DNA of 64,000 bases from contig NZ_SJKA01000004.1 in assembly GCF_004331435.1 (NCBI RefSeq), positions 620,001-684,000 of the forward strand, given 5' to 3'. The stretch comes from Kribbella sindirgiensis (lineage in GTDB: Bacteria > Actinomycetota > Actinomycetes > Propionibacteriales > Kribbellaceae). Below are positions 9,018 through 36,452 of the stretch, piece by piece. Each line of letters begins with the position of its first letter. The first letter of the stretch is position 1. Both the position numbers and the translations under genes were made by a program. The notes beneath the pieces were generated by a model. That model worked only from the letters and a program-made list of their open reading frames with translations, was not told the DNA's origin and did not search any database.

Positions 9018-9098
9018 CTCACCCCTCCTCGCCCCGCCTCGCACATTACGTGCCGCTCCAGCAGGCGTCGACCCCAGCGCGGACGTACGCTGGAACGC

Positions 9099-9617
9099 AT
9101 GTCTGTGTCGCCAGATTCTGACCTGCCGTCCGTTGCCGCCGTTGCTGCTGACATCGCCGGTGTGATCGGGCGATTCACGCACGGCGAGACCCATGCCTTC
9201 GCGTTCGGCGACGGCGGTGTCCCCGAGGCGGTCATCGCGAGCTACGACCAGTACGACGATCTCGGCGGGGATGACACCCTCGGCAAGTACCGGACCGTGG
9301 TTGCTCCCGAGGTGCTCGGCCGGCAACTGCCGGAGATGGTCGAGGCGATCCGCCGCGGAACCTTCGGCCCTCCGGTCCTCGTGGGCTCCGACACCGGCCC
9401 CGTCCTGGTGGTGATGTCGACCCAGCAGTACCGCACCCTGCGCGGTGACGACGAGCCGCCGCCGGGCGTGATCGACGACCCGACCGTCCGCACCTACGAC
9501 TCGTCGCCGACACCGGGCAGCGTCCCGTTCAGCGTGGACGAGTGGGCCAAGGACGACCCGTTCACCCAGCAGATGCTCGAAGAGATCCGCCAGGAACGCG
9601 GCAGCGGCGATGGCTGA
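9099..9617 (+). CDS. putative antitoxin with two Phd/YefM-like domains
   Basis: A 172-residue protein whose two halves look alike. Residues ~14-55 contain GRFTHGETHAFAF then a strand and PEAVIASYDQYDDL. Residues ~75-112 contain IRRGTFGPPVLVG then a strand and PVLVVMSTQQYRTL. Both follow the Phd/YefM antitoxin pattern of helix, two strands and a (S/D)xxxY-x-x-L end. An acidic C-terminus (VPFSVDEWAKDDPFTQQML) resembles antitoxin tails that wrap the toxin. The gene overlaps the following RelE-like gene by 8 bases. The start was set at the ATG where homology-like sequence begins. An antitoxin role is inference from domain pattern and operon layout. The duplication is unusual, because most Phd antitoxins are 70-90 residues. 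Confidence 0.6.
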   Translation: MSVSPDSDLPSVAAVAADIAGVIGRFTHGETHAFAFGDGGVPEAVIASYDQYDDLGGDDTLGKYRTVVAPEVLGRQLPEMVEAIRRGTFGPPVLVGSDTGPVLVVMSTQQYRTLRGDDEPPPGVIDDPTVRTYDSSPTPGSVPFSVDEWAKDDPFTQQMLEEIRQERGSGDG

Positions 9618-10284
9618 GAACCAGCCAGAGCGGCCGTACCAGGTCCTGCTCGGCGAAGGCGCCGTTCAGGACCTCAACCGGATGCGCGACGCGGCCGCCG
9701 CGGAAGCCAAGCAGTACCCAGGAGACAAGTCACCGGCGAACAACGCGAACCGCACGCTCTACAAGGGCGTCCTCCGCGAGTTGCAGGATCTCGAGAGCGG
9801 CGCGTCGAAGGGCCACCATGTGCTCGGCGCGCACAAAGGTCTCGGCGACGGCCGGGACATCGTCGTGTCGAAGATCGGCGACGGCACCGGGAAACCCAAC
9901 CATCGCATGACGTTCCGCGAGATCCCCGGCCGGAACGCCGGCGGGAAGGATGCCCGCGACGTGATCGCGATCGGTCCTCGGCACGCCGGCGACAACAACG
10001 CCTACCACCAGACGGCGATGCGCCTCGGACGATCGGCCGACCGGACCCTCCCGGAACTCGACCGGTTCGGTGCGGCGCAGGTCGGTAGTGGTGGCAAGGC
10101 CCATCAGCGCAACCCCGTCCTGGACGCGAACCGCGCGATCGCGCACGCCTTCGACGGCCAGAAGCCCCTGTCAGGTTCGCGGCCGCTCAGCGAGACCGCG
10201 TTCGGGAGCCGCGCAGGTTCGAGCGGCGGCAAGCACGCCGGCAAGCAGGCTGGACGTCAGACCGACCCACAGCAAGGCAAGTAG
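9610..10284 (+). CDS. putative RelE/ParE-superfamily toxin with long C-terminal tail
   Basis: A 224-residue protein. Residues ~9-141 fit the RelE/ParE fold pattern: a first strand YQVLLGEGAVQDLNRM, helices with LYKGVLRELQDLESG, a basic strand region ending HRMTFREIP, and a closing DVIAIGPRHAGDNNAYHQTAMRL. The last resembles the family's v-x-x-v-G-x-R-x-x-x-x-Y-x-x-A-x-x-R-L ending. Candidate catalytic residues are His99, Arg100, Arg103 and Arg124. Residues 142-224 are a low-complexity Gly/Ser/Lys/Gln tail not expected in a RelE toxin (normally 85-100 residues). The gene overlaps its presumed antitoxin by 8 bases, indicating coupled translation. mRNA cleavage or gyrase poisoning are both possible and cannot be decided here. 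Confidence 0.6.
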   Translation: MAENQPERPYQVLLGEGAVQDLNRMRDAAAAEAKQYPGDKSPANNANRTLYKGVLRELQDLESGASKGHHVLGAHKGLGDGRDIVVSKIGDGTGKPNHRMTFREIPGRNAGGKDARDVIAIGPRHAGDNNAYHQTAMRLGRSADRTLPELDRFGAAQVGSGGKAHQRNPVLDANRAIAHAFDGQKPLSGSRPLSETAFGSRAGSSGGKHAGKQAGRQTDPQQGK

Positions 10285-10308: not shown

Positions 10309-10788
10309 GTGAAGAAGCCTGAGGCTGAGCCTGTTGTCGCGCGGAACCGGAAGGCTGCGCATGACTATCACTTGGGTGAGGCCTGGGAGGCCGGGATCGT
10401 GTTGCAGGGGCCTGAGGTCAAGGCGCTGCGGGCCGGGCGGGCTTCGCTGGTGGGTGGGTTCGCGATGGTCGAGGAGCGGGAGATCTGGTTGCACGGCGTG
10501 CACATCCCGCAGTACTCGCAGTCTCGCTGGTTCAACGGCGGCTCGCGGCGTAAGCGGAAGTTGCTGCTACATCGGGCGCAGATCGACAAGATCGAGCGCA
10601 AGGTGAACGAGGGCGGACTGACGATCGTCCCGGTGAGCCTCTATTTCAAGGACGGTCGCGCGAAGGTCGAGATCGTCCTGGCGCGGGGCAAGAAGACCTG
10701 GGACAAGCGGCAGACGCTCGCCGAGCGCGAGGCCACCCGCGAAGTCGAGCGCGCGGTCAGCCGGCGGTTGAAAGGTCGGTCCGACTAG
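10309..10788 (+). CDS. SmpB-like tmRNA-binding protein, probable paralogue
   Basis: A 159-residue SmpB-family protein, the partner of tmRNA in ribosome rescue. The conserved core is visible: ARNRKAAHDYHLGEAWEAGI, GPEVKALRAGRASL, SRRKRKLLLHR, PVSLYFKDGRAKVEIVLARGKK and the basic tail DKRQTLAEREA. The family's usual TGTEVKSLR is here QGPEVKALR, and the C-terminal tail is short. Start is GTG; a GGGG run abuts it and AGGGG lies 12 bases upstream, so initiation is not textbook. Canonical smpB sits with ftsEX/prfB and ssrA; neither is present here. Its TAG stop overlaps the stop of the convergent kinase gene within one CTAG. It may be a second, diverged SmpB. Confidence 0.85.
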   Translation: MKKPEAEPVVARNRKAAHDYHLGEAWEAGIVLQGPEVKALRAGRASLVGGFAMVEEREIWLHGVHIPQYSQSRWFNGGSRRKRKLLLHRAQIDKIERKVNEGGLTIVPVSLYFKDGRAKVEIVLARGKKTWDKRQTLAEREATREVERAVSRRLKGRSD

Positions 10789-36283: not shown

Positions 36284-36307
36284 CTGCCAACCCCTCCAGA
36301 AGAAACT

Positions 36308-36380
36308 CTCCGGAGGCGCCCTTGCATCAAAGCTCCAGGTCGAGCGTGGCGGACCCGGGTCCGTTGCAGCGCCTCTCGGC
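36308..36380 (-). ncRNA. probable SAH riboswitch in the metH leader
   Basis: Read on the minus strand, the leader contains GAGGCGCTGCAACGG, then an inner hairpin around GACCCGGGTC, CCGCCACGCTCGACC, and finally GCAAGGGCGCCTC. The outer P1 arms (36369-36375 with 36313-36319) pair perfectly over 7 bp. The conserved GCGCUGC-AACGG, C-A-x-GCUCG and GCAA-GGGCGC blocks match the S-adenosylhomocysteine riboswitch consensus, known upstream of ahcY and metH. It lies 25 bases before the metH ribosome site at 36291-36297. SAH binding would raise metH expression. A TAGAAT -10-like hexamer is at 36433-36438. Confidence 0.75.
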
Positions 36381-36452
36381 CTGGATGCCCCATGTTAGTG
36401 GCGTCACACTCAGCGCCAAGCGCAGAGTCCACATTCTAGGACGGGTGTTCAC

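What the first reader, a model, noticed from the sequence alone, without database searches (positions are those of the whole stretch)
9099..10284. Toxin-antitoxin-like operon with a duplicated-domain antitoxin and a long-tailed RelE-like toxin
Seen: two coupled genes (8-base overlap). The first protein has two similar halves, each with a G-x-x-x-(A/V)-x-x-x-G strand hairpin and a final SYDQYDDL or STQQYRTL. The second has a RelE/ParE-like order ending GPRHAGDNNAYHQTAMRL, then an 80-residue low-complexity tail. Established: Phd/YefM antitoxins are 70-90 residues with one such domain; RelE toxins are under 100 residues. Inference: an enlarged type II module in which one antitoxin carries two DNA-binding or dimer units, and the toxin has an added targeting or RNA-binding tail.
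Basis: partly seen in the sequence, partly recalled or inferred. Interest (0 to 1): 0.65.

Follow-up and report, generated by a model that had tools for sequence, protein, structure and literature searches.

The report
Toxin–antitoxin pair with doubled antitoxin
Two overlapping genes in a soil actinobacterium (Kribbella) most likely encode a growth-stopping toxin of the RelE/ParE kind and an antitoxin built from two fused copies of a usually single DNA-binding unit; it is an unannotated variant of a well-known kind of system, not a new kind.

Summary
In detail: a 172-aa protein (9099-9617) with two similar halves overlaps by 8 nt a 224-aa protein (9610-10284). Curated families give no hit above cut-off. 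A predicted structure puts the second protein in the RelE/ParE/YoeB fold: nine of the ten best Foldseek rows and nearly all VIA-align rows are such toxins. Each antitoxin half matches the single Phd/YefM-like antitoxin of sister loci. Relatives occur in most of 38 Kribbella genomes (up to seven toxins per genome, sister branch included) and in three genomes of another genus of the order. In all intact two-domain pairs inspected the genes are adjacent. Decay is one-sided: toxins are deleted, truncated or frameshifted beside intact antitoxins; no intact toxin without an antitoxin was found. The "80-residue low-complexity tail" is mostly wrong: residues 143-200 are as constrained as the toxin domain, and only about 24 terminal residues are relaxed. 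Best reading: a type II module whose antitoxin may be a single-chain Phd pseudo-dimer with one neutralising tail. Toxicity, target, stoichiometry and DNA binding are untested. New variant of a known kind.

The parts
9086..9091 (+). putative -10 element TACGCT, 7 nt before the antitoxin ATG (leaderless-transcript architecture)
   Evidence: TANNNT at this place in all 9 loci of the window's subfamily, read from the upstream sequences; in the sister subfamily -12..-7 are the most conserved upstream positions. Function inferred.
9099..9617 (+). antitoxin gene, 172 aa, two Phd/YefM-like units and a C-terminal tail
9120..9284 (+). antitoxin half 1 (residues 8-62), Phd/YefM-like
   Evidence: hhalign to single-domain antitoxins 97.1%, E 6e-11; VIA-align best row 2odk_A (Phd family), Z 3.3 over 49 residues, weak
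9294..9458 (+). antitoxin half 2 (residues 66-120), Phd/YefM-like
   Evidence: hhalign to single-domain antitoxins 97.3%, E 2e-11, to half 1 97.0%; similar order of predicted elements as half 1
9459..9614 (+). antitoxin C-terminal tail (residues 121-172), helices predicted at 146-151 and 154-167, presumed toxin-binding
   Evidence: conserved in the alignment, low to middling model confidence; role inferred from YefM (PMC4803016)
9610..9617 (+). 8-nt overlap of antitoxin stop and toxin start
   Evidence: read from sequence; 8 nt in all window-type pairs, mostly 4 or 11 nt in the sister subfamily
9610..10284 (+). toxin gene, 224 aa
9634..10032 (+). RelE/ParE-fold domain (residues 9-141); R82, R99, R124 invariant and Y132 Y or F in 28 homologues
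10036..10209 (+). conserved C-terminal extension (residues 143-200) with helix 164-180 and a G-Q-x-P-L-x-x-S/T-R-P-L motif
   Evidence: pN/pS 0.19; alignment; model
10210..10281 (+). variable disordered end (residues 201-224)
   Evidence: pN/pS 0.72; pLDDT about 36
10309..10788 (+). neighbour: second smpB gene, 25 nt downstream; probably not part of the module
   Evidence: adjacent to the pair in 4 of 38 Kribbella genomes only

Best explanation
A chromosomal type II toxin-antitoxin module. The second protein is a RelE/ParE-superfamily toxin, most likely a ribosome-dependent mRNA endonuclease, with an added conserved C-terminal extension. The first protein is its antitoxin: two Phd/YefM-type units fused in one chain, followed by one tail that would block the toxin. 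Shown by computation: the fold of the toxin (as a predicted model), the internal duplication, the relation of both halves to single-unit antitoxins, strict pairing, one-sided decay, purifying selection. Inferred: toxicity, neutralisation through the tail, RNase activity, repression of the own promoter, and that the two units pack as an intramolecular dimer. In E. coli YefM2-YoeB only one of two identical tails holds the toxin (PMC4803016), so a single-chain antitoxin with one tail would build that 2:1 arrangement into one polypeptide. A plausible origin is an antitoxin gene left behind by toxin loss fusing with the next antitoxin.
For: Toxin model: b-a-a-b-b-b-a order; Foldseek: 9 of the 10 best rows are RelE/YoeB/ParE toxins, prob 0.80-0.99, best E 5.7e-3; VIA-align: nearly all 50 rows are this superfamily, top Z 8.9, 92 aligned, 2.7 A. 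hhalign against E. coli RelE (E 0.06, weak) is in register with RelE R61, R81, Y87 = R99, R124, Y132; these are R in 28/28, R in 28/28, Y or F in 28/28. Antitoxin halves: controls. Phd/YefM hits, all below the curated cut-off: 14.9 bits for the window protein, 15.6-19.2 in relatives. Overlapping pairs in most of 38 Kribbella genomes. Decay: toxin absent (L047), decayed (L048, by eye), internally deleted to 41 aa (L049), broken (L099, L100), antitoxin frame intact each time; G003 has only a frameshifted toxin and no antitoxin match. Pairwise dN/dS about 0.1-0.36 antitoxin, 0.15-0.29 toxin. Antitoxin and toxin divergence correlate, r 0.67 within one subfamily, 0 of 1000 permutations as high.
Against: No curated family hit above cut-off. 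Foldseek E-values are modest and none is below 1e-3. The antitoxin model matches Phd/YefM structures only weakly (Z up to 3.3) and Foldseek ranked CBS-domain proteins first, at low probability. RelE K52 and K54 have no clear lysine counterpart. ParE toxins match the model as well as mRNases do. No conserved operator palindrome was recognised by eye in the window copy. Nothing was tested in cells.
Confidence: 0.78

Rival explanations
1. Same module, but the toxin is a ParE-like gyrase poison (or hits another target) and not an mRNA endonuclease.
For: The best VIA-align rows are ParE2/ParE structures (Z 8.9-8.6), tied with YoeB/RelE; RelE K52/K54 lack a clear lysine counterpart.
Against: Positions aligned with RelE R61, R81 and Y87 are kept in all 28 homologues, allowing Y/F; Phd antitoxins are recorded with Fic/Doc, PIN, RelE and MazF-like toxins (PMC2701414).
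Confidence: 0.22
2. A retired or domesticated pair: the second protein is no longer toxic and the pair serves as a transcription regulator.
For: Antitoxins persist without toxins (L047-L049) and stay constrained.
Against: The toxin is under purifying selection with invariant putative active-site residues; one-sided decay is what a toxic partner would give.
Confidence: 0.13
3. Ordinary single-unit TA module in which the second antitoxin half is not a Phd unit but an unrelated spacer.
For: VIA-align rows for Phd structures cover half 1 only.
Against: Half 2 matches the single-domain antitoxins at least as well as half 1 does (97.3%, E 2e-11); Phd_YefM hits fall in half 2 in L018 and L002.
Confidence: 0.04

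Closest known systems
YefM-YoeB (E. coli, M. tuberculosis RelJK, S. aureus)
   Same: Phd/YefM antitoxin upstream of a RelE/YoeB-fold toxin; tail-mediated neutralisation presumed
   Different: One Phd unit per chain in YefM, two here; YoeB is about 84 aa, this toxin 224 aa with a conserved extension; no significant sequence match
E. coli RelBE / M. tuberculosis RelBE1
   Same: Toxin fold; aligned positions R61/R81/Y87
   Different: RelB (E. coli) is of another antitoxin type (general knowledge); the toxin here is larger; hhalign only E 0.06
PfiAT of the Pf4 prophage
   Same: RelE/ParE toxin with a C-terminal extension, there needed for complex assembly (PMC13048266)
   Different: The PfiT extension is a 15-residue helix; here about 58 conserved residues; antitoxins not compared
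Single-domain sister loci in Kribbella, another genus of the order, and a Streptomyces plasmid (L029, L030, L079, L205, L207, L102)
   Same: Related toxin, Phd-like antitoxin upstream, overlapping or abutting genes
   Different: One Phd unit per antitoxin; the Streptomyces toxin (170 aa) lacks most of the extension

Membership tests
Type II toxin-antitoxin system | Two-gene operon, genes adjacent or overlapping | tested here: met
   8-nt overlap; adjacent in all intact two-domain pairs inspected
Type II toxin-antitoxin system | Second protein toxic when alone, first neutralises it by binding | not testable with these tools
   Only indirect: one-sided decay of toxins
Type II toxin-antitoxin system | Antitoxin or complex represses the own promoter | not testable with these tools
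   Putative -10 next to the ATG; no conserved palindrome recognised by eye in the window copy
RelE/ParE superfamily | RelE/ParE fold | tested here: met
   Predicted model only (pLDDT 74.6)
RelE/ParE superfamily | RelE catalytic positions (needed for the mRNase branch) | tested here: inconclusive
   R61, R81, Y87 positions kept; K52, K54 without clear lysine; alignment weak, E 0.06
Curated RelE/ParE families in Pfam and NCBIfam | Score above curated cut-off | tested here: not met
   No hit
Phd/YefM antitoxins (PF02604) | Score above curated cut-off | tested here: not met
   14.9 bits against 29.8; best relative 19.2
Phd/YefM antitoxins (PF02604) | Phd N-terminal fold | tested here: inconclusive
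   Best VIA-align rows are mostly Phd/YefM but Z only 3.3 to 2.4; Foldseek itself put CBS proteins first
Phd/YefM antitoxins (PF02604) | One Phd unit per chain (typical, not strictly defining) | tested here: not met
   Two units

The most novel reading that the evidence does not exclude
The doubled antitoxin is an obligate intramolecular Phd dimer with a single tail, which fixes the antitoxin-to-toxin ratio in one chain and so changes or removes the ratio-dependent autoregulation (conditional cooperativity) usual for type II modules; doubling has arisen more than once in this family.
Probability: 0.35. Interest if true: 0.55.

Novelty: new variant of a known kind. Interest (0 to 1): 0.4.

Why it matters
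It adds a toxin-antitoxin family that curated libraries miss, present several times per genome in Kribbella. Natural single-chain versions of a dimeric antitoxin, together with single-unit relatives in the same genomes, would let one test directly what antitoxin dimerisation and tail number do for neutralisation and autoregulation.

Tried and rejected
NCBIfam and PADLOC: no hits for either protein; PHROGs: one weak antitoxin-family hit, E 0.23, for the antitoxin. Viral contigs and phage records: no relative of the toxin; plasmids: one Streptomyces record for the toxin, none for the antitoxin. Solved-structure sequence search with the family profiles: nothing credible. An operon with smpB as part of the system: rejected, since the pair sits next to the second smpB in only 4 of 38 genomes. 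A palindrome CCAGCG-N8-CGCTGG at 9074-9093, noticed by eye as a possible operator: its left arm is not kept in L004 or L005, so treated as chance. CBS-domain likeness of the antitoxin: probability at most 0.15, rmsd mostly 13-15 A, rejected. Papers: none found on Kribbella TA systems of this type or on fused Phd antitoxins in the open library, which does not show that none exists.

Full report
What is there. The window lies in a Kribbella genome: own genome G000, 8.9 Mb; its congener G017 has a contig of the same length and match position as the named record NZ_SODU01000003.1, Kribbella pratensis. ORF 9099-9617 (172 aa, ATG) overlaps ORF 9610-10284 (224 aa, ATG) by 8 nt. A second smpB follows 25 nt downstream.

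Family searches. Pfam: the first protein reaches PF02604 (Phd_YefM) with 14.9 bits, E 0.024, cut-off 29.8; the second has no hit. NCBIfam and PADLOC: nothing for either. PHROGs: one weak hit for the first protein, phrog_2268, an antitoxin family, E 0.23, and nothing for the second. In relatives PF02604 reaches 15.6, 18.1 and 19.2 bits, in half 2 for L018 and L002 and in the single unit for L029. So both proteins lie below curated thresholds.

Toxin. The AlphaFold2 model on 19 sequences has mean pLDDT 74.6 and the order E10-14, H16-35, H42-63, E85-89, E98-105, E114-123, H131-138. Foldseek in the PDB: nine of the ten best rows are RelE/YoeB/ParE toxins, with probabilities 0.80-0.99 and E from 5.7e-3; no row passes 1e-3. 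VIA-align rows are almost all of this superfamily (three TrmO rows near the bottom are not), top Z 8.9 with 92 residues at 2.7 A. Against E. coli RelE alone hhalign gives only E 0.06, but the aligned columns place R99, R124 and Y132 on RelE R61, R81 and Y87; in 28 homologues these are R 28/28, R 28/28, and Y 25 with F 3.

Antitoxin. The model (pLDDT 78.4) has two similar successions of helix, two strands and helix, then helices 146-167. As profiles, half 1 and half 2 match at 97.0%, E 1.1e-10, and each matches the single-domain antitoxins of sister loci, at 97.1% and 97.3%. Thirty column-shuffled controls reach 13.5% and E 2e-3 at best. VIA-align puts Phd/YefM structures mostly first, for residues 9-65, but Z is only 3.3-2.4.

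The C-terminal part of the toxin. Among six window-type orthologues pN/pS is 0.23 for residues 1-142, 0.19 for 143-200 and 0.72 for 201-224. The middle part is conserved in the sister subfamily too. Its function is unknown; PfiT shows that an extension can serve complex assembly (PMC13048266).

Distribution. Toxin relatives: 29 of 38 Kribbella genomes with the single protein; with the profile, 32 Kribbella genomes and three genomes of another genus (G517, G582, G604) among 343 of the order. Two of these three (G604, G582) carry the two-domain antitoxin beside a toxin (L203, L204). In 395 genomes of the class the toxin profile gave two weak short matches outside the genus. One Streptomyces plasmid has a single-unit pair, also with an 8-nt overlap. 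No relative in phage records or viral contigs.

Pairing and decay. In the intact two-domain pairs inspected the genes are adjacent. Toxin damage beside an intact antitoxin frame: L047 (no toxin remnant seen), L048 (remnant read by eye), L049 (41-aa internal deletion), L099 and L100. G003 has only a frameshifted toxin and no antitoxin match. G008:C36 and G023:C2 hold toxin fragments only. I did not inspect every toxin hit. Antitoxins without toxin (L047-L049) show dN/dS among themselves of 0.17-0.20, although toxin loss may be recent.

Origin of the doubling. In some single-domain loci there is a second Phd-like ORF just upstream of the antitoxin (L172-L175, L178, L179), and in L206 one open frame holds two whole single-domain antitoxins. 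These fit a route in which an antitoxin left after toxin loss fuses with the next one, and doubling may have happened more than once; this is inference.

Promoters. Upstream of the sister subfamily's antitoxins a TANNNT lies at -12..-7, and TGTGGATAA (the reverse complement of the DnaA box TTATCCACA) begins 46-49 nt upstream with at most one mismatch in 24 of 26 loci (18 perfect). The same layout occurs before other genes in the genus, while the reversed control pattern has no match in 38 genomes. The window copy lacks the box. What binds it is not known.

Verdict. A type II module of the RelE/ParE-Phd kind with a tandem-Phd antitoxin: new variant of a known kind, moderately interesting.

Noticed in passing
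window 10309-10788; G000:C44:63823-64272: Two smpB genes in all 38 Kribbella genomes searched; the window copy is the second, the other lies near the only tmRNA match over the cut-off in the own genome.
   Followed up: partly
upstream of antitoxins in L002, L003, L010-L021, L023, L025, L026, L052, L053, L056, L060, L069, L070, L072: DnaA-box-like TGTGGATAA beginning 46-49 nt before the start in 24 of 26 sister-subfamily loci, and the same layout before a LysR-type gene, a 96-aa protein family, a lysyl-tRNA-synthetase-like gene and an ABC-F-like gene in the genus; gene names by eye.
   Followed up: partly
L172-L175, L178, L179: Phd-like ORFs immediately upstream of single-domain antitoxin-toxin pairs, several ending before the toxin-binding tail.
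   Followed up: partly
L206:2003-2686 (-): One open frame with two complete single-domain antitoxins in tandem, possibly an independent doubling.
   Followed up: no
window 36307-36383 (-): SAH riboswitch match, 38.1 bits against a gathering score of 37.
   Followed up: no
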